This document shows, piece after piece, positions 22,319 through 51,268 of a DNA stretch of 63,451 bases. Numbering within the stretch: position 1 is the first letter of the stretch; every line of letters begins with the position of its first letter. The notes below the pieces were generated by a model, which did no database searches, was not told the origin of the DNA, and worked only from the letters and a program-made list of their open reading frames with translations. This stretch comes from a virus: the IMG/VR virus record IMGVR_UViG_3300007960_000021, positions 1 through 63,451 of that record; one strand, written 5' to 3'. The translations under genes and the position numbers were made by a program.

Positions 22319-22578
22319 TGTCCCACTACGGTGTCGATACGATCGCATGGACTGACGAGCAGGTGCTCGGCGGAATTGCGAACATGGACAGGTCGAAGGC
22401 GAGGCGGCAGATTGAGAGCGGGGCGTGCCCTGACGAGGACTTCGAGTACATCTACCAGCTTTACATGCTTGCGTACGACGATCTGTCGAGAGCCGCAAGA
22501 GCCAGGGACGATGCTCGGCGTGAGTCAATGAAGAGAAAGACAGAAGCTGCCATGGCAGGGAGAACGAATGGCCACTAA
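22318..22578 (+). CDS. Downstream half of the frameshift fusion
   Basis: 86 residues from the first ATG (MSHYGVDTIAWTDEQVLGG), helical and charged. It could be made alone by re-initiation at the overlapping TGATG, but there is no ribosome site; the -1 frameshift from the previous gene explains it better. Its C-terminal helix is Arg/Ala-rich. It overlaps the portal gene by 11 bases. Confidence 0.6.
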   Translation: MSHYGVDTIAWTDEQVLGGIANMDRSKARRQIESGACPDEDFEYIYQLYMLAYDDLSRAARARDDARRESMKRKTEAAMAGRTNGH

Positions 22579-27050: not shown

Positions 27051-29225
27051 ATGCCTTTGCCTGCCGCAATTCGCTTTGCTGAGTCTGGGTGGATTCCCTA
27101 CAAGGGACCGAAGGGTGGCGTTGGCTGGCAGAACCAGTCAACGGGCAAGGTCGTGTACCAAGAGAAGCAGCCTGGAGCCAGCACCAAGCCGAAAAAGATT
27201 GACTACGAGGGATTGCTGCTGGAAGACGAAAAGGAGAGCGAGTACGGCAAGAAGACCTACATTGAGAGCCACAAGGAACTCGACGGCCTGGTCAAGCAGA
27301 TGAAGAAGGTCGTTTCCGGCATGGGCCACTCAGGGATGCTCAAGGGATACGAGGTAGCAGAGTTTAACCTTGGAACTGGAGAGCTTGACGTAAAGAAGAC
27401 CCTGGAGGGGATATCCTACGTTGCCATGAAGGCCGTTAGCAAGCTCGCATCTGCATCGGGCATGAACGATCAGGTTCTCGCCTCGGACGTTCTTCGCACT
27501 GTCATTGGCGCATTCGATTCTGCTGGAATTTCGTACGGTGTTCTTGGGAAGTACGAAGCGGGGCAGATCAAGGATGCTCTGAGCGACTCCGTGAACAAGA
27601 GCGTCATTGACCACTACCGATCGACGTTTGCTGCAGCGGCGTTTTCGTATTCCATGTCGCTCAGGAAGGACGTCGGCGAGTACATTGGCCTTGACAACGA
27701 AGAGCTTGAAAGCAGCGAGCACGCAGGTAAGTCCATGGAGATGCTTGTCGATTCGCTCGCGGACGATATGGCGAGTAATCATCACGCAATTCGCGCGAAA
27801 GCCATGGAGCTGACGAAGCGGCTGGCGACGACGATCGTGCTTAGCGGAACAGCGCTTCCAGAGGTAATGCCGCTTGCGAGCGTGAGTGATCTCGTGAAGG
27901 CATACAGCTTGGCCGCTTACGAAACCGGATACGGCAAGGACCTCGATGCGGCGGTGAAGGAGTCAATCGACAACGACTATGAAGGCGACCCTGACTATGA
28001 CGACGACGCCCCGCCGATAGGCGACGACTACGAGGACATTGACAGCCTCGACGATCTTCTGCCTGACGTTGACGACATTGGCGACGACGATGTGGCCATC
28101 CCGCCGCCGATTCCAACGAGACCGCCTCTCATTAAAAGGTACGCTGGCGGGCCGACTGACGACACTTTGTCGCAACCTCTGTCGAGCCCTGAGGACTCGG
28201 AGACCGGGAGGGCAATTGTCTGGCACTTCGCGAACGTGATTCAAAAGGGGCTGATCGACAAAGTCCCTCTTGCGTCTGACGAATTCAAGGAGAAGCTCAA
28301 GCACAATTCAGTGTTCCTTGAGCACCAAACAATCAAAGCGTCGCCAGAAGTTACCGTTGCCATGAAGCACGCCATTGCCGTAGATTGCGGCAAGGGGATA
28401 GATGACAGGGTCTCCCCTGAAAGAGTCAAGGCATTCAGTGAGTTCGTCAGGAAGCGAGGCGCAAGGAGTTACTCGAATCTGAAGGGGAGGTTGACTGACG
28501 GAGAGGTAGCGGCGGCGGAACTTGTCACGACCTGGGCGCACAGTTCGGACGGGTCTAGCGACCTAAGCTGGGCGCTGCAGCACGCCGCCGAGGAAATGTT
28601 TGGACTCAAGGACCCGTACAGAACGACAAGAGCGTCTACGCCCTATGCCACAAAGGGGAAGGAGATTCTTGAGGAGTATGGCGACGTTATCGGCGCATTC
28701 ATGGAGCACACTTACGAGCAAACGCAGGCCATGCTTGCCGACGCTGGTATCAAGCACGTCACCCTGTACCGTGGAATCACCATGAGCACCGCGCAGAAAA
28801 ACCGACTGAATCTTGACACGGTCGCGATCAAGTCATTCAGCGGAAGCACGACCATTCGCAGGTCTGGACGCGACGGAGAGGACGTGTCCATGCAGCCGCT
28901 TTCGTCGTTCTCAACATCCCCTGGCACGGCTGCGGAGTTTGGTGAAGTTATGATTGCGGCGGTGGTTCCTGCGGAGGCGATATTCTCGTCGGCGTTTACT
29001 GGGACTGGGTGCCTGAACGAATCGGAGCTTGTCGTCCTGTCCCACAAGATGAACGCTACGGTTCTTGACTTCGGTGACTCAGACTCAGATGCGTACACCG
29101 CAAAAAAGTACTGGGAACTCGCAAGCGGAGAGCTTGACCACGAGAATCAGTCGTCGGTTGCAGGAAAGTCCTCGCCAGACGATGATTACCTCAATGGGCT
29201 TGACGACCTATTTGACGACCTATGA
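27051..29225 (+). CDS. ADP-ribosyltransferase with GGVGW domain
   Basis: 724 residues. The N-terminus runs AIRFAESGWIPYKGPKGGVG, then TGKVVYQ, a short domain also present at the start of the GNAT protein at 31011. Residues 60-300 are helical and unknown. Residues 300-360 are an acidic Asp/Tyr/Pro linker. The C-terminal ART domain has LYRGI (Arg 574), LSSFS near 616 and N-E-S-E (Glu 657, Glu 659), giving the R-S-ExE set that transfers ADP-ribose from NAD to a protein. The bacterial target is unknown. The tail end is acidic (DDLFDDL). It follows the portal fusion by one base. Confidence 0.75.
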   Translation: MPLPAAIRFAESGWIPYKGPKGGVGWQNQSTGKVVYQEKQPGASTKPKKIDYEGLLLEDEKESEYGKKTYIESHKELDGLVKQMKKVVSGMGHSGMLKGYEVAEFNLGTGELDVKKTLEGISYVAMKAVSKLASASGMNDQVLASDVLRTVIGAFDSAGISYGVLGKYEAGQIKDALSDSVNKSVIDHYRSTFAAAAFSYSMSLRKDVGEYIGLDNEELESSEHAGKSMEMLVDSLADDMASNHHAIRAKAMELTKRLATTIVLSGTALPEVMPLASVSDLVKAYSLAAYETGYGKDLDAAVKESIDNDYEGDPDYDDDAPPIGDDYEDIDSLDDLLPDVDDIGDDDVAIPPPIPTRPPLIKRYAGGPTDDTLSQPLSSPEDSETGRAIVWHFANVIQKGLIDKVPLASDEFKEKLKHNSVFLEHQTIKASPEVTVAMKHAIAVDCGKGIDDRVSPERVKAFSEFVRKRGARSYSNLKGRLTDGEVAAAELVTTWAHSSDGSSDLSWALQHAAEEMFGLKDPYRTTRASTPYATKGKEILEEYGDVIGAFMEHTYEQTQAMLADAGIKHVTLYRGITMSTAQKNRLNLDTVAIKSFSGSTTIRRSGRDGEDVSMQPLSSFSTSPGTAAEFGEVMIAAVVPAEAIFSSAFTGTGCLNESELVVLSHKMNATVLDFGDSDSDAYTAKKYWELASGELDHENQSSVAGKSSPDDDYLNGLDDLFDDL

Positions 29226-29238
29226 GAAGGAGAGCTGA

Positions 29239-30453
29239 ATGACGATCTACCCTGACCGGGATATCCGAAACGCCGACTGGACAAAGAAGACGAAGGATGT
29301 TCGGATTGGCAGGCGGCGAAGGCGAGCAAGACCAAAAGGACGAGCGGCCATTGATGACAGGAGCGCATTGTCGCTGGCTGTTATTCGCTTCGCCGCGAAG
29401 AAGTCGGCGGCTGAACTCATAAAGTCGGCCGAAGAGGCCATGGCTGCCGGTCGCGTCCGCGTGGCCAATCGTTTGATGACACTGGCGAAGCGGGCCGGTG
29501 CAAGCGACTCTGCGGCAACGAAGGCCGTTGGTCGAGCGCTGCCTGAAAGAACGAGCACCAAGACGCGGCGAGGCAAGGCCAAGGCCGACACGTCGTCATT
29601 TGTTGGTGCCAAGCTGAAGACTGTCACGGTAACGCTGAAGAGCGGCAAGAAAAAGAAGAAACAGCAGTACGTGCAAGCCAATGGGAAGCCGCTGCCGCCG
29701 CACATTCCGCCGATCCCGCCAAACTGGAAAGATGTCAAGTGGAACCCAGACCCGAAGGGCGACAGACTTGTCGTTGCTCGTGACGAGGCTGGCCGCGTCC
29801 AGTCGAAGTACAGCGAGAAGTTCAGCGGCGGAAACGCTGGAAAGAAATTCTCGCGAGTCGGCGAACTGGCACAGAAGCGAGAAGACGTTGCCCGCCAAAA
29901 CGCTGGGAACATGCGGCACAAGAACCCCAAGATTCGCGAGGCGGCGCAGGTGCTCGCGCTTATCTTGGCGACTGGCATTCGGGTTGGCTCTGGCCGTGAA
30001 ACAAATGCAAAGGTTCAGTCGTACGGAGCGACGACGCTGCTGGGCAGGCACGTTGTCGTCAAGGGCGGCAAGGTGTCTCTGCAATACACAGGAAAGAAGG
30101 GCATCCAGAGAAACGTGCCTATCAACGACCCGCGAATTGCTGCCGAGCTGAAGAAGCGAAAGCGGGCGTCAGGCCCCGACGGCAAGCTGTTCAAGGTGGC
30201 GGCTACCTCGATGCGCAAGTACACTGACTCACTTGACGGCGGCGCGTTCACGCCGCACGACTTCCGAACCATGATGGGAACGAACATCGCGGCGGCGGAA
30301 GTTGCCAAGCTGCCGAAGGCCAAGAACGAGGCCGAGTTCAAACAGATCAGCATGGGCATTGCCAAGAAGGTTGCTGCTCAGCTTGGTAACACGCCGACCG
30401 TTGCTTTGCAGTCGTACATTGACCCTACCGTATGGGCCAAGATCAAGCCGTAG
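29239..30453 (+). CDS. Type IB DNA topoisomerase with N-terminal tag
   Basis: 404 residues. It relaxes supercoils by nicking one strand through a 3'-phosphotyrosyl link. The catalytic domain (residues 150-404) shows all expected residues: ATGIRVGSGRETN (Arg), YGATTLLGRHV, QYTGKKG (Lys), TPHDFRTMMGTN (Arg) and LQSYIDP (Tyr near residue 393). Residues 47-105 hold the shared motif after AVIRFAA. The N-terminus is basic (IGRRRRRARPKGR). Phage-encoded topo IB is uncommon. Its place among head cargo genes suggests packaging with the DNA. A tyrosine integrase is less likely because of the GIRVG...SYGATTL topo signature. Confidence 0.78.
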   Translation: MTIYPDRDIRNADWTKKTKDVRIGRRRRRARPKGRAAIDDRSALSLAVIRFAAKKSAAELIKSAEEAMAAGRVRVANRLMTLAKRAGASDSAATKAVGRALPERTSTKTRRGKAKADTSSFVGAKLKTVTVTLKSGKKKKKQQYVQANGKPLPPHIPPIPPNWKDVKWNPDPKGDRLVVARDEAGRVQSKYSEKFSGGNAGKKFSRVGELAQKREDVARQNAGNMRHKNPKIREAAQVLALILATGIRVGSGRETNAKVQSYGATTLLGRHVVVKGGKVSLQYTGKKGIQRNVPINDPRIAAELKKRKRASGPDGKLFKVAATSMRKYTDSLDGGAFTPHDFRTMMGTNIAAAEVAKLPKAKNEAEFKQISMGIAKKVAAQLGNTPTVALQSYIDPTVWAKIKP

Positions 30454-30675: not shown

Positions 30676-31011
30676 ATGAAAAACTCAGCAGGGGCCGCAG
30701 GCTCCGACAATCTGTCTGGATTCGAGGGCGGGAAGAATGCCAGCAAGACCGATCCGTTCGGCTGCGGGTGCGACACGCACTTGACGAATCCGGTGGACTG
30801 GCGGGCCAATCGCGGCCCGGAGGATGAATTCGACCCTGACGACGAGGAACTTCGGGAGACGCCTCCTGAGGTCATTGAGGCGCTTGGGTTCGATCCGAAG
30901 TCGTCCGAAAGCGAGCCTGCCGCGTCTCGGCTTGGCAAAAAGCGTATGCGGCCGGTTCGCGATCGCGGTGACTATGAGGGGCTTAGCCACATTCGAGCGG
31001 AGGACTACTGA
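30676..31011 (+). CDS. Hypothetical acidic protein, 111 residues
   Basis: MKNSAGAAGSDNLSGFEGG, a CGCDTHLTNP element, then an acidic helix (DEFDPDDEELRETPPEVIEAL), a short basic patch (GKKRMRPVRDRG), and the end HIRAEDY. The acidic Asp/Tyr end recalls the tails of its neighbours. Its stop overlaps the next start (TGATG). Not recognised. Confidence 0.5.
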   Translation: MKNSAGAAGSDNLSGFEGGKNASKTDPFGCGCDTHLTNPVDWRANRGPEDEFDPDDEELRETPPEVIEALGFDPKSSESEPAASRLGKKRMRPVRDRGDYEGLSHIRAEDY

Positions 31012-32000
31012 TGATCGACTTGGTCCGGATGGCGTCAAGGGGGTGGAAGCGATATCAGGGTCCTCGCGGCGGCGTCGGCTGGGTCAATTCGATTACAGGC
31101 AAGGTAGTGTACCAAGACGAACGCCCTGGCGACGGCGAGCCTGCAAAGAAGAAGTCGCCTGCCAAGCGGAAAGGGAGGGCCGCAAAGCCTGCCGCAAAGC
31201 CTGCCGCAAGGCCATCTGCAAGGGCTGCGAAAAAGCCTGCGAAAAAGCCTGCGAAAAAGCCTGCGAAGAAAGCTGCCAAGCCCGTCCGCGTGACAGAGAG
31301 GTTCACTGGGGACGCAGAGGGAAGTCTTGCTGAACTCAGGAAGTATGGCGGCGGAAGTCTCCCGAAGGGATTGAAGAATGCGGGCGAACTTGCAAGTCTT
31401 GGCGGTGCCTCGGAAGGCGACGAAAGCGCCAACATAATGGAGATGGAGCCCGGCAGGTGGGACATTTCGTTTGGCAGCAAAGGCACGTTTGGCCATACGA
31501 CTGTTGACATGAGGGACAAGTCTGTCCGCATTGAACTTTGCATGGTCAGCAAGGAGAAGCGAGGGACGGGGTTCGCCACGGACATGCTGCGGAACATCGT
31601 CAGTAACGCCCAGCGGCTCGGCCTGAAGAAAATCACGCTGCAGGCAGTAGAGGATGGGCCTGCGGTTTGGCCGAAGTTCGGGTTTAGTGCGAATCTCGGC
31701 GAGGAAGAGCTTGTCGGCGCCCCGAAGGGCGCTAAAGAAGTCAGCGATCTCATGCTGACGCCTGAAGGGAGGGAGCATTACAAGACGATACAGTGGAACT
31801 ACGATGACGTTGATTTTGAAATGTCACTGAAGCCGGGAAGCACGGACCTCAAGGTGTTCAATGAGTACATGAAGTCAAAGAGCCCCAAAAGCAAGAGTTG
31901 GCGCAAGCCGCTGTTCCCGAACGCGAAGCCGACTAGCGGCAGCAGGTATGACGATAGCGGCGACGATTACGACGATTATGACGACGACGATGACTATTGA
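31011..32000 (+). CDS. GNAT acetyltransferase with H1-like segment
   Basis: 329 residues. Residues 1-35 repeat the GGVGW domain of the 27051 protein (VRMASRGWKRYQGPRGGVG, then TGKVVYQ). Residues 45-95 are a Lys/Ala/Pro region of AKKPAKKP repeats, like histone H1, likely to bind DNA. Residues 130-260 look like a GNAT fold: VRIELCMVSKEKRGTGFATDML with an acetyl-CoA-binding R-G-T-G loop, then a helix and KITLQAV, and FGFS. The C-terminus is an Asp/Tyr run. The family acetylates proteins or small molecules; the substrate is unknown. With its tail it may bind DNA in the capsid. Confidence 0.65.
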   Translation: MIDLVRMASRGWKRYQGPRGGVGWVNSITGKVVYQDERPGDGEPAKKKSPAKRKGRAAKPAAKPAARPSARAAKKPAKKPAKKPAKKAAKPVRVTERFTGDAEGSLAELRKYGGGSLPKGLKNAGELASLGGASEGDESANIMEMEPGRWDISFGSKGTFGHTTVDMRDKSVRIELCMVSKEKRGTGFATDMLRNIVSNAQRLGLKKITLQAVEDGPAVWPKFGFSANLGEEELVGAPKGAKEVSDLMLTPEGREHYKTIQWNYDDVDFEMSLKPGSTDLKVFNEYMKSKSPKSKSWRKPLFPNAKPTSGSRYDDSGDDYDDYDDDDDY

Positions 32001-34863: not shown

Positions 34864-37407
34864 ATGCCGTCGCTGGTTGATTCAATACTGAAGGTCGGGC
34901 TTGTCGCTGGCCAGACTTTTGTTGACGAATTGCGGGGGAGGCTGCTGTCTCAGGTTGGTCTTCTAAATGCCGGTGTTCCGATTGAAACGGTGATCCGAGC
35001 CGCCCGCGAGATCATGTCTGAGACAGCACCTCTTATCGCATCGCTGGCGTCGGATATTCAGATAGCCGGTTGGGTTGCCGGGCTTGACGAGACGGCAAGG
35101 TCGCTGCCGAAGAACGTCCAGAGGGCAATCGCTGAACTCGATGATCCTCTTGGCCTGAAGGCCCCGAAGCTCTACCTGCCGTCTGACCCGGTTCCGCCAT
35201 CGGAAGTGAAGTTCTCGCCGGTCGTCGAGTTTCCATGGATGGACGAAGCGATCAATCGCCTGATTCACCGAAACGTGATGACGCGAGACGAGTTCGACGA
35301 GGCTTCTGACGACCTGAAGTCTCAGGCGTTCACCATCGCGAACATTGACAGCGAAGAGACGATCGGAACGATAAGGGACCTGCTCGCAGAGCACATGGCT
35401 GACCGCGACGCGAAGAACACTCCCAGGGAGTTCTACAATCGTGTCGTTGACAAGCTTGGTTCGTCGCCGATAGGGATGCCGCATCTTGAGACGGTGTTTC
35501 GCACGAACACCACGATGGCATACTCCGCGTCGCGCGAGGCGATGCACAGCAGTCCGGTTGTCCAGGCGGTGTTTCCGTACGCTGCGTACTGGTCGATTCG
35601 GGACGGAAGGGCAAGGCAGAATCACCGGGCACTTGAGAAGCTCGGCCTGAACGGAACGAACGTCTATCGCGCAGACGATCCCATGTGGAAGCTGTTCACT
35701 CCACCGTGGGACTTCAACTGCCGCTGCAGCAAGACGTACATGACGATCCGACAAGCAGCACAGGCTGGCGTCGAGGAGGCGCAGGACTGGTTGAACTCAG
35801 GCGTTCCCCCGTCGTCGCCAGAGTGGCGGATTGACGACATTCCGTTCCGCAAGCAGAACGACTTCGTTGGCGTCAGGCTTTCGACGACAGTTAGGATGAT
35901 GCGGTTCGGACTGTCGGCGTCCGAGTTGCTGAAGCGATCCGCAGAGGCCGCCGCTGCTGGCAAAAAGCGAATTGCATCCGGTCTCGCCACGCGAGCAAAA
36001 AAGGCCGGTGCCACTGACGCGCAGATTGCCAGGGCAATGAAGGGCGGCGGCAAGGCCAAGCCTGCAGCAAAAAGACAGGCCAAGAAGTCAGCAAGCACTG
36101 GCTCGCGGCCTATGACAAAAGAGGAATGGAAAGACCCGGCCTTGTTCAAGTCGGCGGTCACTGCAATTTTCAGCACTGGCCTTGCATCGAAGGCTGTCCC
36201 CAAAAGCAGGCTCAAGGGCGCCTCTAGCTGGAGGAAGGTCAGCGAAGTTGGCATGGCGTACGCCCCGAAGATGAAGGCCAATATAGCCAAGCACTACGGA
36301 GCCATGCTAGAGAAGTCGCTTCCGGCGAGCCACCTGAAAAAGGTCGTGACTGAGCTGCTAGGTGATGACGACGACGATTACAGCTACTATGGCTACGCTC
36401 ACGGCGAGCGGCTAAAGGAGGCCGAGGATGCGAAGGGCGACGGCGAGAAGCTCGTCGCATTCATTGTTGATAGCTGGGCGGAAACCAGCGCTGACCACGA
36501 CGCTCACGCGATTGCGATACAGGAGATTGTCGGTGAGACGCTAGGAGTGAAACCTAAATGGAGTTCAACCGACCGAATGGACAGGGGCGAGGTCCTCGGA
36601 GTCAAGAGGCTGCTCAAGAAGGTCGTTGGCGAATTTGCCAAGAGGGTGTATGCCGATACTCAAGCCTCATTTAAGAAGGCAGGGGTGACGCACCTGCCGC
36701 TGTGGCGAGGAATGCACTCGGATCACAAGCTGAAAGAGGGATTCAATGACACTGAATACTCCCCCGAAGTAGACGTTGCCCTGCAGCAACTGTCGTCATT
36801 CTCGCTGGAGCAAGAGACGGCAAAGACATTTGGCGACACGCTGATCGCGGCAACGGTCCCCGTCAAGGACGTATTCTGCGTGTTCGGGAACGGACTCGGA
36901 TGCGCCAGTGAGACTGAGGTTGTCGTTCTCGGTAGGCCGATGAAGGCGGCAGTCGTGAAGGGCATGTCTGGAGACGACTTCTTCGAGGAACTGAATCCTG
37001 AGTTTCACAGAAAGGCGATCGAGGACAAAAAGGCTGCGGACGCGAGAAACAGAGAGAGTGCTGCCAGCCTGAAGGCGGCTGACTCAAAGGCTGGCAAGCC
37101 CTACGCGCTGCCGCCGAAGCTTGCAGAGAAGTCGGGCGACGTGCTCAAGCTGCTCAAGTCTAAGGCCAAGAGCGCGGCGGGCAAGAAGAAGCTTGCGGCG
37201 TTCAACAGGTACATGAAGTACATGACGAGCGGGAATTTGAAGATAGGGTCGAAGAAGATGACTGAGGTGTCCCACGGAATGAAGGAGGCTGGCCTGATCG
37301 ACTGGGGATTGCACATTAGGATCGTAAATGCTTCAGTGGCAGGAGTTGACCTTGACCCAAGAATTGTCATGGAGGCAGTCTTGAAGCACATCATCAAGGA
37401 GTCGTAG
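34864..37407 (+). CDS. Mu gpF-like minor head protein fused to ADP-ribosyltransferase
   Basis: 847 residues. Residues 1-340 are a gpF/SPP1 gp7-like minor head protein: VFRTNTTMAYSASREAM, then IRDGRARQNHRALE and FTPPWDFNCRC. Residues 344-400 hold the shared motif after MMRFGLSA. Residues 430-560 are helical with an Asp/Tyr run. Residues 605-700 are an ART domain, LPLWRGM (Arg 615), LSSFS (near 644) and S-E-T-E (Glu 683, Glu 685). Residues 700-847 are helical. Mu gpF is present in few copies near the portal and enters the head; ART fused to gpF is known from other phages. It is very close to the C-terminal 450 residues of the portal fusion, so the two share a duplicated tag-ART unit. Confidence 0.82.
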   Translation: MPSLVDSILKVGLVAGQTFVDELRGRLLSQVGLLNAGVPIETVIRAAREIMSETAPLIASLASDIQIAGWVAGLDETARSLPKNVQRAIAELDDPLGLKAPKLYLPSDPVPPSEVKFSPVVEFPWMDEAINRLIHRNVMTRDEFDEASDDLKSQAFTIANIDSEETIGTIRDLLAEHMADRDAKNTPREFYNRVVDKLGSSPIGMPHLETVFRTNTTMAYSASREAMHSSPVVQAVFPYAAYWSIRDGRARQNHRALEKLGLNGTNVYRADDPMWKLFTPPWDFNCRCSKTYMTIRQAAQAGVEEAQDWLNSGVPPSSPEWRIDDIPFRKQNDFVGVRLSTTVRMMRFGLSASELLKRSAEAAAAGKKRIASGLATRAKKAGATDAQIARAMKGGGKAKPAAKRQAKKSASTGSRPMTKEEWKDPALFKSAVTAIFSTGLASKAVPKSRLKGASSWRKVSEVGMAYAPKMKANIAKHYGAMLEKSLPASHLKKVVTELLGDDDDDYSYYGYAHGERLKEAEDAKGDGEKLVAFIVDSWAETSADHDAHAIAIQEIVGETLGVKPKWSSTDRMDRGEVLGVKRLLKKVVGEFAKRVYADTQASFKKAGVTHLPLWRGMHSDHKLKEGFNDTEYSPEVDVALQQLSSFSLEQETAKTFGDTLIAATVPVKDVFCVFGNGLGCASETEVVVLGRPMKAAVVKGMSGDDFFEELNPEFHRKAIEDKKAADARNRESAASLKAADSKAGKPYALPPKLAEKSGDVLKLLKSKAKSAAGKKKLAAFNRYMKYMTSGNLKIGSKKMTEVSHGMKEAGLIDWGLHIRIVNASVAGVDLDPRIVMEAVLKHIIKES

Positions 37408-37409
37408 CC

Positions 37410-40010
37410 ATGCCGGTAGTAGACGTAGGCGTACACCTTGACGACACGTACGCCTGCCTGCACCCAGACGCACTGATTGAAACGACAGTTGCATCCGAGT
37501 GGCCTCAGCACTACTGGCGGCGAGCAAACTCGTACACATGCCAGAGAGGGTTCGCTCCTGGCGTCGCGTACCTGCTCATGGCCAAGCGTGACGTTGATGC
37601 GATCGACAAAAATGCCGCCCACACGATCACGTTCTCTGCCGGTGCGGAGTACGTCCGCCTGGTGAAGATGTACTTCGTCAAGGCGACGTGCATGTCGGGT
37701 CTCATTAGTGAGACAAGCCCATACCTTGTCGAACTGAGGGACTGTCGGGTGCTGTGCGAGATGACCTCGTACAACAAGCGGATCAACGTGAGGCAGTCTC
37801 TCGCGCCAATTGGGTCCGAGACGACGCCCGACCTGTACTACTCGGAGAGCTTGAACAGCGGGGCGCTGTGGACATGGAACACCCTCGTCGCGAACATCTG
37901 GACGACAATGCCATCGGGCGTGACGGCAACCGCTCCGACGTTCCCGGTGACGCCAGAGGGGAGTCCTGAGAATCTTCGCTTTGACGGCTACTCGGCGTGG
38001 GAGGCGCTGAAGGTCGTTCTTCGCGTGAACCAAATGACGCTGGCGTACGATCCGTCAAGCGGTGAGTTTTCGATCGTCAAGCCGGACGACCAGAACGGCG
38101 AAGAGCTTGGCTTGCTTGTCGATGTCCACGGCAGGAGGGTGTATGACTTCGAGCCCATTGAGGGCGACGCCGCCAAGGAGGTAGAGAAGGTTGACGTCGT
38201 GTTTCGCGTCGTTGACAAGTACACCGGCCAGGGGTGGGATCAGTCGAGAGACGATAGATCGTTTGAAGGCGACGTTCACATTGAAACGGTCGCCACTGGA
38301 ATCGCCGGGGCAGTCGTCGGGACACGTCGCATTGTCAGGGACTCGATGCTCGCGATCAAGCTTGAGAACGGGTCGATTGACAATACGAGCGAGCTGTCGT
38401 CGCGGGCAACGCAGTTGGCAGGCGCACTGTACGCAACGCACACGAAGATCAACCGGTACTACGGCCTTGTCACTTCAATCGTGCCCGGCGCTGGCATCGG
38501 CATGGTCCGCTGGCGACAGTACAGCACGCGAAGCCAGCCGAGCGGCGGTGTTGAAGTTGGCGGGATGATAACTGAAATCTCAACTGGCGGCAACGACATT
38601 GCCGCAGAGTTTGGTCGCGACGAACTGCCTCAGGCGAGATGGCCTGACTACCAGCTAGAGACTTATCTCGGCAAGCTGGACGATAACATTGAAGCAATGA
38701 GTGACTCCGACGAGCCTGGCGTCGGAACGGTGAGCATCTACGGCATCGACAAAGACTCGCCGCAGGTCGTGCAGGACATGGGCTGGAACGTAGAGGCGAT
38801 GAATCCGCTTGACATAGACAGAGGGTCCACTGAGTTCTCGCTTCTGCATCGCGATCCGTACAGCAGGCAGTTCATGCTTGGCGCGCCAGGCATGGGAGAC
38901 ATCGACGTCATCTGGTGCAAGCCGTACTCAGGAACATGGGGGAAGGGCCAGCTTGTCTTTCCGTACGAGGAGGTCAGTTCGCCGTACTCGACGACGCTCA
39001 ACGGGCTGCAGTTGACCCAGAGAAAGAACAGGAGATTTAACGCATATCGGTTTGACGAAGTCTGGGCGCAGCACGTAGACGCGAACGGCAATCCATGCAG
39101 GCACCTTCCTGGGATGGCGGGAGTCGCATTGCAGACGGCTGGCAACACGACGGACTACTGGCCGGTTGCGATCGGCGGGGTTGTTCCTGCGATCATCGCG
39201 ACCGAAGACATGGCGATTGCTGGCGTCCGGCCTGAGTGGGCGTACGTTTTTCCTCAGGATCAGGGCGACGTCACTGGGAAGACGACAAGGCCGCCATACC
39301 TGTACGGCTCGCAGTGTCGAGAGTGGTGGAACACTCCGCACTTGAACATCAATGACGGAGCCAACTACCCGATCGACGACAGTTGGTACTTTTCGCAGAC
39401 GCCAAGGGCCAGGATATTGTCTTGGAACAACTGGGACAACGCAACGAACAACCTTGCGACGAGCGTCGATCAGTACAACTGGGCATGGGTTCAGCTTATT
39501 CCTCCGCGAACGAAGTACGGAGTAGAGGTTGCGGTCAATGCGACCAATCAGGACCCGTCGGGATTCACCTACGGCGCTGACCTTGGCGCGAAATACTACG
39601 ACAGTCCTGATGCGATGTTCACGATTGACGGAGACGGGTTCCTTGAGGCGCTTGGCACGTTCCGGGTGAGGCTCAGGTGTGCGATAGACTTGACGTGGAC
39701 TCCAGGCTCCGCCACTGCGAACCAGATCAACATTTACTGGGTCAGGAACAATGCGACAATCTCGGCGATAACAAGCAGCAATCTGATATACGCAAGCAAG
39801 GTCCGCGACGTTGTTACGAGCACCGGGAGCGGCACGTTTTACCTGACGTACCACATGGAACTTGAGCTGTACGTCACGATTGGCGACACGATAACGGTCT
39901 ATCCAACTGACGGCAGTGACATCGAGATAGACTACTTGATCGTTCAGGCCGAGCACGTAGACGAGCTTGTGACGCCTGGGTGTACGCAGATTTGGCTCAA
40001 TCCTCCGTAG
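37410..40010 (+). CDS. Probable tail protein, 866 residues
   Basis: A large beta-rich, Trp/Tyr-rich protein. The N-terminal 450 residues have Dit/Tal-like strands (FDGYSAWEALKVVLRVNQM, YDFEPIEGDAAKEVEKVDVVF). The C-terminal 400 residues are enriched in aromatic residues and look like a carbohydrate-binding or receptor-binding part (WNNWDNATNNLATSV). It starts two bases after the gpF-ART stop. Probably a tail hub or host-recognition component. Confidence 0.55.
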   Translation: MPVVDVGVHLDDTYACLHPDALIETTVASEWPQHYWRRANSYTCQRGFAPGVAYLLMAKRDVDAIDKNAAHTITFSAGAEYVRLVKMYFVKATCMSGLISETSPYLVELRDCRVLCEMTSYNKRINVRQSLAPIGSETTPDLYYSESLNSGALWTWNTLVANIWTTMPSGVTATAPTFPVTPEGSPENLRFDGYSAWEALKVVLRVNQMTLAYDPSSGEFSIVKPDDQNGEELGLLVDVHGRRVYDFEPIEGDAAKEVEKVDVVFRVVDKYTGQGWDQSRDDRSFEGDVHIETVATGIAGAVVGTRRIVRDSMLAIKLENGSIDNTSELSSRATQLAGALYATHTKINRYYGLVTSIVPGAGIGMVRWRQYSTRSQPSGGVEVGGMITEISTGGNDIAAEFGRDELPQARWPDYQLETYLGKLDDNIEAMSDSDEPGVGTVSIYGIDKDSPQVVQDMGWNVEAMNPLDIDRGSTEFSLLHRDPYSRQFMLGAPGMGDIDVIWCKPYSGTWGKGQLVFPYEEVSSPYSTTLNGLQLTQRKNRRFNAYRFDEVWAQHVDANGNPCRHLPGMAGVALQTAGNTTDYWPVAIGGVVPAIIATEDMAIAGVRPEWAYVFPQDQGDVTGKTTRPPYLYGSQCREWWNTPHLNINDGANYPIDDSWYFSQTPRARILSWNNWDNATNNLATSVDQYNWAWVQLIPPRTKYGVEVAVNATNQDPSGFTYGADLGAKYYDSPDAMFTIDGDGFLEALGTFRVRLRCAIDLTWTPGSATANQINIYWVRNNATISAITSSNLIYASKVRDVVTSTGSGTFYLTYHMELELYVTIGDTITVYPTDGSDIEIDYLIVQAEHVDELVTPGCTQIWLNPP
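37699..37714. repeat. Dispersed palindrome copy 8 (arms exact)
   Basis: GTCTCATTAGTGAGAC in the tail gene. The arms are perfect and the spacer is TTAG. Read as G-L-I-S-E-T. Confidence 0.8.
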
Positions 40011-40039
40011 TTGACACTGCGGCAGCAATCAATGATTAT
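40011..40039 (+). promoter_or_regulatory. Sigma70-type promoter for the secreted-protein unit
   Basis: TTGACA, a 17-base spacer, then GATTAT, directly after the tail gene stop and about 38 bases before the next start. A consensus -35 and near-consensus -10. Confidence 0.6.
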
Positions 40040-40076: not shown

Positions 40077-40430
40077 ATGAGCGATCGAAAAGAGGTTGTC
40101 GAGAGTATTGTGCTTGGAGTCGCGCATGGACGTGCAAGCGCGCTTCCCAACAAGAAGTTCAGCTTCGCCGAACTGCTTGGCGTTCTTCGGTCGGTGCTGG
40201 AGGACGGGCGGATTGACCAGGGGGACAAGCCGGTCCTGACAAAGGCCATGCAGTCCGCATTTGACAAGTACGTCCGCGACTACGACATCCCGTTCATTCC
40301 GAACGTGATCGAGCCGTGGGTTGACGACGCGCTGTACGCGGCGATTCCGGCGATCGTTGGGGCGGCTCTGAATAGCATCTTGCCTCAGGCTGTCGAGGCG
40401 CCGAAGGGATTTCCGCCGATGGGAAGCTGA
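40077..40430 (+). CDS. Hypothetical protein, 117 residues
   Basis: It starts with MSDRKEVVESIVLGVAHGR, has a helix FAELLGVLRSVLEDGRIDQG with an EF-hand-like acid pattern, and ends with a weakly hydrophobic helix (YAAIPAIVGAALNSIL). CGGAGAG lies upstream. First gene after the promoter at 40011. Unrecognised; possibly a holin-like or membrane-associated protein, but the C-terminal segment is too short to be sure. Confidence 0.5.
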   Translation: MSDRKEVVESIVLGVAHGRASALPNKKFSFAELLGVLRSVLEDGRIDQGDKPVLTKAMQSAFDKYVRDYDIPFIPNVIEPWVDDALYAAIPAIVGAALNSILPQAVEAPKGFPPMGS

Positions 40431-40467
40431 GCAACGCAGCCAACCGCCACCTGACGAGGGCAGAAGC

Positions 40468-41289
40468 ATGAGCCAGTTGATTTGCGGAGTCACCCCGGCA
40501 CAGTCCCGCATGGCAGCGCAGCAGCGGTGCCAGTGGGATCGGGGGTACGAGATTAAGTGGGCCGTTGAGTCGTACGTACCTGGGTTAGACCAGGACGAGC
40601 AAGAGCGGCTGCATACCGAGTCGTACGAAGAGTGGATGAGCGTCTGCGGCGTGTTGTTCAAGCGGGTCCGAATGCAGGACCGGCCGAACATCATTATTCG
40701 CCATCGCAAGATTGACGGACCTCAGGGCGTCCTGGCGCAGCACTACATGCCGTGCGGAAAGCCGAATCCTGAGACGGTCTTGCCTCACGAGATCGACGAA
40801 AGCGAAAGCTGGAGCACGCAGAAGAGTCCTCCTCGCGGTCAAATTTCATTCTACCATGTCGTGAGGCACGAGACTGGGCACGGGCTTGGTTCTCCGCACA
40901 TCGAGGACCCCGAAGTCGTCGCTGTGATGAACCCGTACTACAACGTGGCTCTGGCGGTCTTGCAACCGGGCGACATTCAAGAAGGCTTGATTCGGTACGG
41001 AGAGGCAAAGGTCGCTCCTGACGAGCCGGGCACGGACGATGCCGCCTGCGAGTTGACCAAGTGCCTGAAGTCGCTTGGCATCGTTGATTCGCGATCTGAG
41101 CGGGCAATCGGTATTGCAAGGCAGCGAATCACGGAAGAGTGCGTCAAGCTGATATTCGGCTCGCTGTTCCCGAAGAGCGTTGGAGTTCGCATTCCACCTG
41201 CGGTTGTCGAGGCAGTGCAGGACCTGTCGAATCCGGTGAACGCGGCACTTGTCCGCGAGTTCATCGAGCATCCGGAGGCTTATCAATGA
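40468..41289 (+). CDS. Metzincin-type zinc protease
   Basis: 273 residues. HETGHGLGSPH (residues 138-148) is a complete HExxHxxGxxH zinc site, and VAVMNPYY about 15 residues later fits a Met-turn, so it belongs with matrixins. The first 130 residues are a mixed region with FYHVVR leading to the helix. The C-terminal 90 residues are helical. No signal peptide is visible, so it may act in the virion or in the host cytoplasm, or be released on lysis. It may degrade host cell-surface protein or process another gene product of this unit. It overlaps the next start (ATGA). Confidence 0.8.
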   Translation: MSQLICGVTPAQSRMAAQQRCQWDRGYEIKWAVESYVPGLDQDEQERLHTESYEEWMSVCGVLFKRVRMQDRPNIIIRHRKIDGPQGVLAQHYMPCGKPNPETVLPHEIDESESWSTQKSPPRGQISFYHVVRHETGHGLGSPHIEDPEVVAVMNPYYNVALAVLQPGDIQEGLIRYGEAKVAPDEPGTDDAACELTKCLKSLGIVDSRSERAIGIARQRITEECVKLIFGSLFPKSVGVRIPPAVVEAVQDLSNPVNAALVREFIEHPEAYQ

Positions 41290-43103
41290 CAGCGTATGCG
41301 ATGGCGTGGCTCCTGTTGTCGAGTGTCCAAAATCCATTGCTCCTTGCGTGCGTTCCGGCTCCGCATATCGCGGACTCTGTTCCTGTCGTTCTCGCCGACA
41401 CTGAGCAGCAGGGGGCGACGTTCTTTCGGTACGTCTGGATTCCGATTGATCCCGATCCGGCAAAGGCGACTCGGCAGATATCCGCCGCCGCCATGGCTGG
41501 GCATCAAATACTCAATCATTCAGGAACGGAGCAGTCTGGCACGTATCTTGGAAACGGTGTCTATCGCTATGACCTTGCAGTCATGGCTGGCGGGGACCCT
41601 GACGTGCTCTCGGACCTTGTGGCGACATGGAACAGGTTTGGCGGCGTCGGTGTCGGCAAGGACGATCACGAGCCGTTCACCTTGACGAATGCCCAGCAGG
41701 TCGGCGAGGGCACTGGCGTCGTAAAGGTGATTGCGGCACCGCTTGTGTGGGCCGTCGGCCTTGACGAGAAGGATGCCAAAGTCACGCTGTCAAGCGGAAC
41801 GAGGCAGATCAGGCTTGTCACTGGAACGACGGTCAGTCTGGCCAAGCCGTGGGATTCATTCAAGGACGCATGTGCGATCGTTATTGACGGGCAGCTTGCA
41901 ATGGTCCCGAAAACCGCACTTGTCGCACTGACGACTCCGTCGGCGGTAAGGGTGCCAGCTCCGTACATGGGCGCAGAGTACGGCGTCATCATGGAGAGGA
42001 CCGCTTGTGCCGCACCGATTGTCCACTTCGGCGAGTTCGTCTCTCGCGGCGTCAGCCAGACTGACGGTCTTGGCTTGTGGTATGCGTTCAGGAGGATCAA
42101 GAAGTCGCCTGACCCGAAGGTGACGGACTTCGACTACATCCTGTCGCAGCTTTCAGGGACGACTCTCGATGAAGTTCGCCGTCGCCGAAAGGTCCAGCTT
42201 GCAATTGTCACGCCGTCAAAGGTTGTTCTCAATGAGGGTGAGCGGGCGGTCTGGCTTTACAGCGGTCTCGCTGTGCCTGGGAGGAATCAGGGCCTCGTCG
42301 GGATCACCGGAGACGCCCGCGTTGGCAGGCCGAACCACGAACTGCCAGTTGCCACGCTTGACGAGTTCAAGCCTGACGCGATGGAGGTATTCGTTGAGGG
42401 AGTGACTCTTGTTACTTTGCTGTTCAGCGGGTACGACAAAAACACTGGCGAGTTCCTCGGAGAACTGCAGGACTTCGCTCCTGACAACATTGCAGCGGAT
42501 CACTCGGCGCCTCTCTCTTACGATCGTCGCATAGACGGGTGGCTTGACTGTGTCGGCTGCCACTGCATTCACAACGATCAGCCTGGCCCATGGTTAGAGT
42601 TGACAAGCTCGATCGGCGACATGCTCAGGAACGGAGAGACGAACCTGACGACCGTCGCCGGACTGAAGGACCCCAAGCTGCTCGATAGGCTCAATGGCGA
42701 ACTGACTCCGAGGTACGCCAAGCCGCTTAGGCGAGCCAATGACGACTTCAACGAAAGTCTGCATTTGCTCACTGGAGACCCTGGCGTGCTTGAAGAGGGG
42801 GAGACGACTGCGAAGCGTCATATCGGCCAGCTTCTGCAGATGTGGAATTACCATTCCAGAAGCACTGTCGATGCGAGGAAGGCACTGCTTCACGCTGGGA
42901 TCGACGCGCCAAAGGAGATTGCCCCATCGGTCGTCGCGTCCCTGTTTGCGCAAGTCCCTGGTCAGGTGCGATACATAGACGCGCTGGCATCTGGCCGCTC
43001 GATTCCGGCGACTGCGTTCAAGGCAATAGCTGTTGATTTCCTGTCACAGACCTACGAGGCTAGGTCGGCCATGCTTAGTGTTCCACAAGGAGTTGAAAAA
43101 TGA
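41286..43103 (+). CDS. Secreted protein with CxxCH heme-like motif
   Basis: 605 residues. The first 22 residues form a signal peptide ending in LLLAC, a plausible lipobox, so it may be a lipoprotein. The body is mixed alpha/beta with several strands. Near residue 420 the motif DCVGCHCIHN contains C-x-x-C-H, the site for covalent heme c. Only one such site is seen and a distal Met or His ligand is not obvious. The C-terminal 150 residues are helical. The next gene also has a CxxCH site, which favours heme over zinc. A c-type cytochrome needs the host Ccm machinery outside the cytoplasm. Overlaps the following gene by four bases. Confidence 0.6.
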   Translation: MTAYAMAWLLLSSVQNPLLLACVPAPHIADSVPVVLADTEQQGATFFRYVWIPIDPDPAKATRQISAAAMAGHQILNHSGTEQSGTYLGNGVYRYDLAVMAGGDPDVLSDLVATWNRFGGVGVGKDDHEPFTLTNAQQVGEGTGVVKVIAAPLVWAVGLDEKDAKVTLSSGTRQIRLVTGTTVSLAKPWDSFKDACAIVIDGQLAMVPKTALVALTTPSAVRVPAPYMGAEYGVIMERTACAAPIVHFGEFVSRGVSQTDGLGLWYAFRRIKKSPDPKVTDFDYILSQLSGTTLDEVRRRRKVQLAIVTPSKVVLNEGERAVWLYSGLAVPGRNQGLVGITGDARVGRPNHELPVATLDEFKPDAMEVFVEGVTLVTLLFSGYDKNTGEFLGELQDFAPDNIAADHSAPLSYDRRIDGWLDCVGCHCIHNDQPGPWLELTSSIGDMLRNGETNLTTVAGLKDPKLLDRLNGELTPRYAKPLRRANDDFNESLHLLTGDPGVLEEGETTAKRHIGQLLQMWNYHSRSTVDARKALLHAGIDAPKEIAPSVVASLFAQVPGQVRYIDALASGRSIPATAFKAIAVDFLSQTYEARSAMLSVPQGVEK

Positions 43104-44212
43104 AGGGCAGACTGGCGATTGTCATTGTGGCGTGCGCGCTGAGTCAGACGTGCGATCCGCATGTCCTACCGGCATCGGAACCGTACACGCTCGTTGACGC
43201 AAGTATCAATCTTTGGCAGGGTGCCGACGGCAACTACTACTCGAAGGAGAAGTACAAGGTTGCGATTCGGCGATGCTCGTACGGTTGCCGATACAGTTGC
43301 AGTCACTGCTACACGACGTACGAGTGGAGGTATCGCTGGACGAAGGTTGACACGGCACCGTCGTACTCGTCGTACAAAAAGCCGGTGGCATCCTCGTACA
43401 CATGGAAGGATCGGTTCATTGACGCCGAGGCGGCTGCGGAAGAGACGAGGGCGTTCTCTTCGCTGATGGCCCGAAAGATGGAGCGCGACGGCCTGCAGTA
43501 CGGGCAGCAGGGCTACGCACAGCAGGGCTACCAGCAGCAATTTGGCTATGCGTCGAATGCGATCACGACGCAGAGCATTTACGGATTTCCGCCGACTGCG
43601 GGAACGTACGCTGGAGTCTACTCGCGGCCGGGATTGCAAGCCCAGGTTGACATGCAGACGGCGGCTCGCTTGGCGACCCAAGCGGGAGAGGTACACAAGT
43701 CGGCCGTATCCGATGTAATGGGCGTCCTGGCGTTGATTGCGCAGTACAACGGAGAGACCAATCGCCAACTGTCGATCAATGAGAGAGACCTTGGCATTGC
43801 GGCGTTGCTGTCGCAGGGGCTGGCGCAGATCGCGACGAGACCTGAGTCTCATACGAGCCAGACAGTCCAGCAGACTGCCCCTACGCAGCAAACGGCACCG
43901 ACCGGGCCGTCGCCGCAGGTGAGTCAGCCTGACGGGATGCTGAACGCAAGTCAGCAGGCGACTCTCAATGCCGCGTCAGCTATAGTGTCGCAGAATTGCG
44001 CAGGATGCCACAGTGGAACCGACGCGCCGAAGGGGCTGCTTCTTACCGACTGGAGCGCACTGTCGCTCGACCAGAAGCGGAAGTGCCTCATTGCGGTGAA
44101 GTCGGGAGCAATGCCGATCGACGCCAGCACAAAAGAGCCTGCGCCACTGACAGACGCCGATATTAGGACGCTCGAAAATGCCACCTTGATATCCGCCGCA
44201 TTTGGTGGTTAA
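43100..44212 (+). CDS. Secreted c-type cytochrome-like protein
   Basis: 370 residues. A signal peptide (MKGRLAIVIVACALSQTC) is followed by a Cys/Tyr-rich region (RRCSYGCRYSCSHCYTTY), a Tyr/Gln/Gly region and a helical part. Residues 280-370 look like a cytochrome c domain: SAIVSQNCAGCHSGTDAPKG with the heme site near residue 299, KCLIAVKSGAMP with the Met that can be the sixth ligand, and PLTDADIRTLENA as the last helix. That order (helix, CxxCH, M-P, helix) is what is expected of class I cytochrome c. Its neighbour has a CxxCH too. AAGGAG precedes the start. Confidence 0.7.
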   Translation: MKGRLAIVIVACALSQTCDPHVLPASEPYTLVDASINLWQGADGNYYSKEKYKVAIRRCSYGCRYSCSHCYTTYEWRYRWTKVDTAPSYSSYKKPVASSYTWKDRFIDAEAAAEETRAFSSLMARKMERDGLQYGQQGYAQQGYQQQFGYASNAITTQSIYGFPPTAGTYAGVYSRPGLQAQVDMQTAARLATQAGEVHKSAVSDVMGVLALIAQYNGETNRQLSINERDLGIAALLSQGLAQIATRPESHTSQTVQQTAPTQQTAPTGPSPQVSQPDGMLNASQQATLNAASAIVSQNCAGCHSGTDAPKGLLLTDWSALSLDQKRKCLIAVKSGAMPIDASTKEPAPLTDADIRTLENATLISAAFGG

Positions 44213-44277
44213 ATAGTAGTCGAATCGCCCCACGCGAACGCAGATTGTTTCAGGCACTTTCACACAAGGAGACTTCC

Positions 44278-44589
44278 ATGAAACCGAAGCATCGCATCAT
44301 GCTCATTGCCCTTGCTGTCATTGGGCTGCTCGCGTTCCTGCCGATTGGGTCGGCCGACGCATGTCCGTATGGCTCGGCCGGTCTCGCCTTCGGGTATGGG
44401 TACTCGCCTCCGGCTCAGCAGTTCGGGTTTGTTGCCCCCGCTGGCTTCGCCTACGCCCCTCCGGTCGCCCAGTTTCAATTCAGGGCGCAGCCTATCCACC
44501 ACGCTCCGCGAGTGCAGTTCAACTTTGCTCCGCAACCGCGAGAGATCGTGTTTGGCCCCTTTGGGCGTGTTCGTCGAATCCGAAACTAA
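44278..44589 (+). CDS. Small secreted protein, Pro/Phe/Gly-rich
   Basis: 103 residues. The signal peptide is clear (MKPKHRIMLIALAVIGLLAF, then a cleavage region near GSADA). The mature part is Phe/Tyr/Pro/Gln/Gly-rich (FGYGYSPPAQQFGFV) and low in charge until the basic end (FGRVRRIRN). AAGGAG lies seven bases before the ATG. Possibly an envelope or matrix-like protein. The last gene of the unit that starts at the 40011 promoter. Confidence 0.6.
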   Translation: MKPKHRIMLIALAVIGLLAFLPIGSADACPYGSAGLAFGYGYSPPAQQFGFVAPAGFAYAPPVAQFQFRAQPIHHAPRVQFNFAPQPREIVFGPFGRVRRIRN

Positions 44590-44608: not shown

Positions 44609-44660
44609 GCTGTCGCAAAACCTTTAGACGATGCGAAGTTTTGTTTGAGGCTGGAGATGA

Positions 44661-44695
44661 GCCGCCGATCGGGAAACCGGTCGGCGGCTTTTTTT
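44661..44695 (+). terminator. Rho-independent terminator
   Basis: GCCGCCGA (44661-44668) and TCGGCGGC (44681-44688) pair, with a second inner pair CGG/CCG, then seven T residues. It closes the secreted-protein unit. Confidence 0.9.
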
Positions 44696-50674: not shown

Positions 50675-50898
50675 GACGCGAGTGCGTTCGCGCTGCGGTT
50701 GGTATCGTAGAGGCCCTGATAAAGACAAGTGAGACCGAGGCTCAGCTTGAGTCGCTTGCCAGGCTTGTAAATGCCGGAATCAACTGCGGAGACATAACCG
50801 AGAGGCAGCGTAGATGGCTGAAAATGACGTACGCAACGAGACTCAAGGAGATTCGCGATGGCAAAGCTAAAGTCGGCAGACAAGAAGATGTACGATGA
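50671..50898 (+). CDS. Small helical protein, 75 residues
   Basis: Starts at GTG overlapping the helicase stop (AGTGA). Product is predicted helical (AAVGIVEALIKTSETEAQLESL, split in two helices) with a basic end. Not recognised. It is coupled to the helicase and overlaps the HNH gene. Confidence 0.5.
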   Translation: MRRECVRAAVGIVEALIKTSETEAQLESLARLVNAGINCGDITERQRRWLKMTYATRLKEIRDGKAKVGRQEDVR

Positions 50899-51268
50899 GT
50901 TTGCGAGACTCTTCGACTTCTGCTTTACGTGCGGCTGGCGACCAAATGAAGGTCTCTGGCGAAACTGGATGATTGGAAGGCTTGAAATGTCGCACATCGT
51001 AGGCGGCAGCGGGCGAAGGCATGACAGGCGAGCGATCGTTAGGCAATGCAGTGGATGCCATCGACTATTCCACGGCGACAGGGTGCGTATTGGCGGGTCG
51101 CTAATGCCGACGCTGACCAAGTCAAACCTGCTGTGGGCAAAGCAGAAGTTTGACCCTGACTACTACGACGTCGAGTACCTTAACTCGCTTTCGATTGCAA
51201 GGCTTGCTGAACCAAAGGAACCAGCCGAATGGTTTATGAGCGAACTGCGAGCAAATGGGTTAGGGTAA
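50858..51268 (+). CDS. HNH-type zinc nuclease-like protein
   Basis: 136 residues. CFTCGWRPNEG and QCSGCHRLFHG give two CxxC pairs, and LEMSHIVGGSGRRHDRR holds the H for the HNH core. The layout fits NinG/HNH proteins that cut recombination or replication intermediates. The overlap with the next gene is 40 bases, long for this genome. Confidence 0.65.
   Translation: MAKLKSADKKMYDEFARLFDFCFTCGWRPNEGLWRNWMIGRLEMSHIVGGSGRRHDRRAIVRQCSGCHRLFHGDRVRIGGSLMPTLTKSNLLWAKQKFDPDYYDVEYLNSLSIARLAEPKEPAEWFMSELRANGLG

What the first reader, a model, noticed from the sequence alone, without database searches (positions are those of the whole stretch)
41286..44212. Two secreted proteins with c-type heme sites in a phage
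The 605-residue protein has a lipobox-like signal and C-V-G-C-H; the 370-residue protein has a signal and a C-terminal domain with C-A-G-C-H, a downstream A-M-P and a final helix, as in class I cytochromes. The genes overlap and share a promoter and terminator with a zinc protease and a small secreted protein. Phage-borne cytochromes are very rare. They might change host electron transport during infection, stay in the envelope to block superinfection, or be virion parts that bind heme.
Basis: partly seen in the sequence, partly recalled or inferred. Interest (0 to 1): 0.76.

Follow-up and report, generated by a model that had tools for sequence, protein, structure and literature searches.

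The report
Paired cytochrome cassette shared by phages
This virus carries two adjacent genes for exported proteins that almost certainly bind heme like cytochrome c, and the same gene pair, usually in a set with a peptidase gene and a small exported protein, recurs in more than twenty other, mostly very distantly related, bacterial-virus sequences, so it is a standing part of these viruses that no paper I could find describes.

Summary
The 605-aa (CVGCH) and 370-aa (CAGCH...MP) ORFs are real, overlap by 4 bp, and lie in a matrixin-605-370-small secreted protein run ended by a strong terminator. A memory-derived DNA pattern, then a profile search, found the 605 family on 21 other distinct IMG/VR contigs and in LR756511.1 (595 kb uncultured phage). 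CxxCH is invariant in 23 aligned 605-family proteins. In 18 aligned downstream partners (15-24% identity to the window's) the only invariant residues are C, C, H, M, P: the heme-c attachment site and His/Met ligands of class I cytochrome c. All 20 CxxCH...MP ORFs in 353 kb of related loci lie directly downstream of a 605-family gene. The two families co-diverge (Mantel r 0.80). A small secreted protein follows in 20 of 21 loci. A peptidase of one of three unrelated classes lies within about 1 kb upstream in 10 of 23 records; none has an Amidase_2, Phage_lysozyme or M15_3 endolysin. PSCyt1 ('Planctomycete cytochrome C') matches 16 of 23 records. Best guess: an envelope-acting, probably egress, module of phages of protein-walled planctomycete-like hosts. 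Function, host and heme loading are untested; cellular homologues could not be searched.

The parts
40011..40039 (+). promoter-like site (TTGACA-17-GATTAT) upstream of the run
   Evidence: 10/12 consensus match; not above chance for the region
40077..40430 (+). 117-aa helical protein, hydrophobic stretch near residue 85; unassigned (other loci also have small helical or TM proteins upstream)
   Evidence: no Pfam/PHROG family; hydropathy
40468..41289 (+). matrixin-type zinc peptidase without signal peptide (HETGHGLGSPH)
   Evidence: Pfam Peptidase_M10 E 4.6e-16; homologous to the L024 matrixin upstream of that cassette, E 1e-24
41286..43103 (+). 605-aa exported protein, first c-type heme protein of the cassette; CVGCH at residues 422-426
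   Evidence: leave-one-out HMM E 3.5e-43 over residues 14-595; CxxCH invariant in 23 sequences; AF2 pTM 0.74
42549..42563 (+). CVGCH heme-attachment codons of the 605-aa protein
   Evidence: sequence; C422, C425, H426 invariant
43100..44212 (+). 370-aa exported protein: aromatic/Cys N-terminal part, predicted helical middle, C-terminal class I cytochrome c domain (about residues 281-370)
   Evidence: leave-one-out HMM E 1e-29; Cytochrome_CBB3 E 5.3e-5 in the one-genome search, below the curated cut-off; AF2 C-terminal pLDDT mostly 77-97
43997..44011 (+). CAGCH heme-attachment codons of the 370-aa protein
   Evidence: invariant C300, C303, H304 in 18 sequences
44111..44116 (+). Met338-Pro339, presumed distal heme ligand
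   Evidence: invariant in 18 sequences
44278..44589 (+). 103-aa small secreted protein, last gene of the run
   Evidence: strong N-terminal hydrophobic segment; an equivalent small secreted ORF follows in 20 of 21 related loci
44659..44690 (+). intrinsic terminator (14-bp stem, T run)

Best explanation
The two genes are the core of a conserved phage cassette: [peptidase of variable class] - [about 500-750 aa exported CxxCH protein] - [about 250-440 aa exported protein with a C-terminal class I cytochrome c domain] - [small secreted protein]. Shown by sequence: membership, gene order, invariant heme-ligand residues, co-divergence of the two heme proteins, presence on contigs with terminases. 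Inferred: both are exported by Sec, the host's cytochrome c maturation system attaches heme, and they work as a partnered redox pair in the host envelope. Most likely role: they act with the peptidase late in infection to weaken the envelope for egress in hosts whose wall is protein rather than peptidoglycan (Planctomycetes-like). There the peptidase would take the place of an endolysin and the heme pair would do redox chemistry on, or anchor to, the Cys-rich wall layer. The heme/cassette part is about 0.9 likely; the egress role about 0.35.
For: 605 family on 21 further distinct IMG/VR contigs and LR756511.1; pair in order with a CxxCH...MP partner within 1.8 kb downstream in 20 loci, and in L055 a partner with Cys for Met; all 20 CxxCH...MP ORFs among 1,210 ORFs in 353 kb are cassette partners. 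Only C, C, H, M, P invariant in 18 partners; CxxCH invariant in 23 605-family proteins. Co-divergence r 0.80, 0 of 5000 permutations. AF2 C-terminal domain with helices in class I order; the best PDB folds are mostly c-type cytochromes, though with E >= 0.57. PSCyt1 in 16 of 23 records, 9 over cut-off, none of 14 control genomes. Phage context: phrog_2 terminase in 11 of 23 IMG/VR records and Terminase_6C above cut-off in one more, tape measure gene on the L027/L054 contig; window terminase, Mu-type portal, head protein, RecT. Peptidase on the same strand within about 1 kb upstream in 10 of 23 records: S8 six, M10 three, C1 one. Amidase_2, Phage_lysozyme, M15_3 in 0 of 23. Most Planctomycetales lack peptidoglycan synthesis genes and have Cys-rich wall proteins (PMC8567305).
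Against: No experiment. The host is not established: Planctomycetes rests on the PSCyt1 family name and on memory, and cellular genomes of that phylum could not be searched. The window's own domain is not matched by PSCyt1. In six records with a peptidase hit it lies 4-48 kb away on the same strand, in LR756511.1 33 kb away on the other strand, and in several records none was found. Only three peptidoglycan-hydrolase families were excluded, in records that are often fragments. L049 has a 605 homologue but no partner gene was found. No electron donor or target is known, and no lysis system known to me uses heme.
Confidence: 0.4

Rival explanations
1. Auxiliary electron-transfer genes: the pair sits in the periplasm and reroutes respiratory electrons during infection, as cyanophage plastocyanin/PTOX are proposed to do.
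For: Class I His/Met cytochrome signature suits electron transfer; partner co-divergence; precedent for phage electron-transport genes in cyanophages (PMC10452541).
Against: Constant linkage to a small secreted protein and frequent linkage to peptidases; no oxidase, reductase or respiratory gene was seen next to the cassette; strong synteny across phage contigs of very different size is unlike patchy auxiliary genes.
Confidence: 0.2
2. Envelope-resident superinfection exclusion, or receptor/wall-binding or virion proteins that happen to hold heme for stability.
For: Exported proteins; position after a large late protein (37410-40010) in the window and beside tail genes on the L027/L054 contig; aromatic/Cys-rich N-termini of the partner.
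Against: A purely structural role does not readily explain strict conservation of the Met ligand and of a second heme protein; signal peptides are atypical for virion parts; the peptidase linkage is unexplained.
Confidence: 0.17
3. The CxxCH motifs bind zinc (or are an HNH-like DH...CxxCH site in the 605 family) rather than heme.
For: The DHxxP...CxxCH spacing in the 605 family resembles an HNH core; one unrelated pattern hit, L033, looks HNH-like by eye.
Against: The His of DH is kept in only 15 of 23; no fourth invariant Cys/His ligand; both proteins are exported; the partner conserves Met-Pro and matches cytochrome c families.
Confidence: 0.06
4. Ordinary host cytochromes on contaminating or misclassified contigs, or repeatedly captured host genes without a phage-specific role.
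For: IMG/VR can contain cellular sequence; contamination of viral metagenomes is documented (PMC3877843); cellular homologues probably exist but could not be searched.
Against: Terminases on 12 of 23 IMG/VR records; tape measure near the cassette on the L027/L054 contig; the window itself is clearly a phage; the same three-gene order on very divergent contigs and in LR756511.1.
Confidence: 0.1

Closest known systems
Class I cytochrome c / Pfam Cytochrome_CBB3 (PF13442) and PSCyt1 (PF07635)
   Same: CxxCH near the domain's N-terminal helix, Met-Pro about 30-50 residues on, C-terminal helix; Pfam matches in the window (PF13442) and in relatives (PF07635)
   Different: Fused to long aromatic/Cys and helical N-terminal parts; encoded by phages in a fixed cassette; window copy below curated cut-offs
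Phage lysis cassettes (holin, endolysin, spanins)
   Same: Signal-less hydrolase gene followed by two adjacent, overlapping genes for exported proteins; hydrolase class exchangeable; small membrane proteins upstream in several loci
   Different: Hydrolase is a peptidase, not a peptidoglycan hydrolase; heme sites; extra secreted protein; function untested
Cyanophage electron-transport auxiliary genes (plastocyanin, ferredoxin, PTOX)
   Same: Phage-borne proteins of electron-transfer families
   Different: Cytochrome c type, paired, syntenic with peptidases, no photosynthesis or respiration genes nearby

Membership tests
Class I cytochrome c (370-aa C-terminal domain) | CxxCH heme-attachment motif | tested here: met
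   Invariant in 18 of 18
Class I cytochrome c (370-aa C-terminal domain) | Distal Met ligand C-terminal to CxxCH | tested here: met
   M338-P339 invariant in the 18 aligned; L055, outside that set, has Cys-Pro-Pro
Class I cytochrome c (370-aa C-terminal domain) | Fold of N-terminal, 60s and C-terminal helices | tested here: inconclusive
   AF2 helices 283-299, 301-304, 323-335, 352-368 with mostly high pLDDT; Foldseek top hits mostly cytochromes c but E >= 0.57
Class I cytochrome c (370-aa C-terminal domain) | Covalent heme and redox activity | not testable with these tools
   Needs expression with Ccm and spectra
PSCyt1 (PF07635) | Match over curated cut-off | tested here: not met
   Window: no match at E 0.01; 9 of 23 records over cut-off, 16 with any match
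c-type cytochrome (605-aa protein) | Conserved CxxCH in an exported protein | tested here: met
   Invariant in 23 of 23; hydrophobic N-termini in most
c-type cytochrome (605-aa protein) | Known cytochrome fold or distal ligand | tested here: not met
   No Pfam family, no PDB or BFVD fold match, no invariant Met or second His; a heme protein of unknown class at best
Phage lysis cassette | Peptidoglycan hydrolase (endolysin) | tested here: not met
   Amidase_2, Phage_lysozyme, M15_3 absent in 23 records; other endolysin families not tested
Phage lysis cassette | Holin | tested here: inconclusive
   Small proteins with hydrophobic segments upstream in L047, L050, L056, L058-L061; window 117-aa protein has one weak hydrophobic stretch
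Phage lysis cassette | Lysis phenotype | not testable with these tools
   Needs a cultured phage-host pair or expression
Phage electron-transport auxiliary genes | Change of host electron flow during infection | not testable with these tools
   Needs respiration or membrane-potential measurements
Matrixin (M10) peptidase, 40468-41289 | HExxHxxGxxH zinc motif and Pfam match over cut-off | tested here: met
   59.5 bits against cut-off 24

The most novel reading that the evidence does not exclude
A phage egress mechanism based on redox: a phage-made pair of c-type heme proteins, loaded with heme by the host, chemically loosens a disulfide-cross-linked protein wall while a phage peptidase cuts it, replacing peptidoglycan-degrading endolysin and spanins in phages of protein-walled bacteria.
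Probability: 0.15. Interest if true: 0.95.

Novelty: new variant of a known kind. Interest (0 to 1): 0.8.

Why it matters
c-type cytochromes need host export and maturation machinery, so a conserved cytochrome pair on phage contigs of about 16 kb (a fragment) to 595 kb means these phages depend on, and act through, the host's periplasmic redox system. How phages leave or control bacteria with protein walls is open as far as I know. This cassette gives concrete, expressible candidates, and a sequence signature for finding phages of such hosts.

Tried and rejected
Single-protein searches for relatives of the 605, 370, terminase, tail and ATPase proteins in viral contigs, phages and plasmids found no close kin. 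A motif pattern from two other window proteins hit other viruses and haloarchaea, not relatives. The breakthrough was a DNA pattern derived from a family I recalled from memory (DHxxP...CxxCH spacing), then a profile search. Rejected: HNH nuclease (DH not conserved), zinc site, contamination. The 605 fold gave no structural match. Literature searches found no such cassette, in an open-access library only.

Full report
What is there. The window is an IMG/VR virus record with terminase large subunit, Mu-type portal, head morphogenesis protein, exonuclease, RecT and helicase. At 40077-44589 on the + strand, after a large 866-aa protein (37410-40010), lie a 117-aa protein, a matrixin, the 605-aa CVGCH protein, the 370-aa CAGCH...AMP protein and a 103-aa secreted protein. 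A strong terminator ends the run; a short 68-aa ORF and recombination and replication genes follow.

Finding relatives. Close-kin searches failed. I remembered a family, which I associate with planctomycetes, whose CxxCH is preceded by DHxxP at a fixed spacing, and turned that into a DNA pattern. It hit 13 viral loci. Twelve encode 605 homologues (E 3e-20 to 3e-7 against the window protein), three of them identical copies. A profile search raised this to 26 loci, some of them duplicates, with 21 distinct contigs used below. LR756511.1, a 595-kb uncultured phage record, also carries the cassette. The window protein is the most divergent member, which explains why nothing was seen at first.

The cassette. 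In 20 of 23 loci checked (all but L044, L049 and L055), an open frame with CxxCH followed by M-P begins between 241 bases before and 1.8 kb after the 605 stop codon. These are all of the CxxCH...MP ORFs among 1,210 ORFs in 353 kb. L055 has a partner with Cys in place of Met. L044 is cut by its contig end, and a PSCyt1 match sits at the other end of that contig. L049 shows none. A small secreted protein follows in 20 of 21 loci. The two heme families co-diverge.

Heme evidence. Among 18 partner proteins at 15-24% identity to the window's, only C, C, H, M and P are invariant. This is the attachment and ligand set of class I cytochrome c and is hard to explain otherwise. PSCyt1 matches 16 of 23 records. 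The AlphaFold model is confident only in the C-terminal domain, with helices in the expected order. Foldseek lists mainly c-type cytochromes, but with poor E-values, so I count it as weak support. For the 605 family, C, C and H are invariant in 23, but the fold is unknown and no distal ligand is evident. I call it a probable heme-c protein of unknown class.

Context and function. A peptidase lies within about 1 kb upstream on the same strand in 10 of 23 records: subtilase in six, matrixin in three, papain-type in one. L061 has an HExxHxxGxxH protein there and L045 a weak C39-like match. In six further records a peptidase hit lies 4-48 kb away on the same strand, two of these being weak matches. 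None of the 23 records matches Amidase_2, Phage_lysozyme or Peptidase_M15_3. The cassette peptidases examined lack an N-terminal hydrophobic segment, like endolysins. Peptidase class needs at least 3 and as many as 7 changes on the 605 tree; clustering is only modest, so exchange is suggested, not proven. Most Planctomycetales lack peptidoglycan synthesis and have Cys-rich wall proteins (PMC8567305). This leads me to an envelope/egress module as the most likely role (about 0.35). Electron-transfer, exclusion and virion roles remain open.

Limits. No cellular genome of the suspected host phylum could be searched. Many records are fragments. The literature library is open access only. Export, heme loading and function are inferred.

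Noticed in passing
window 22568-27049, 27051-29225, 34864-37407: Portal and head proteins carry DRAT-like ADP-ribosyltransferase matches; the portal protein also has a 2'-5' RNA ligase/Acb1-like domain. Looks like polyvalent virion-borne effectors.
   Followed up: partly
window 29239-30453: Eukaryotic-type topoisomerase IB catalytic core in a phage (PF01028, E 7.8e-21).
   Followed up: no
window 27051-27140 and 31011-31100: Repeated motif YxGPxGGVGWxNxxTGKVVYQ at the N-terminus of two proteins; a core of the motif occurs in 15 other viral contigs and two haloarchaeal genomes.
   Followed up: partly
window 50858-51268: A third CxxCH (CSGCH) protein outside the cassette, no Pfam match; nature unknown.
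   Followed up: no
L055 6969-8012: Partner protein with CVTCH but KCPP in place of the Met-Pro: possible change of distal ligand to Cys.
   Followed up: no
L049 8001-9764: 605-family gene without a detectable cytochrome partner downstream: the one exception found.
   Followed up: partly
L036 3732-7337 and L037 3714-7325: A conserved 1,200-aa protein of unknown family encoded divergently next to the cassette in the 146-408 kb phage contigs.
   Followed up: no
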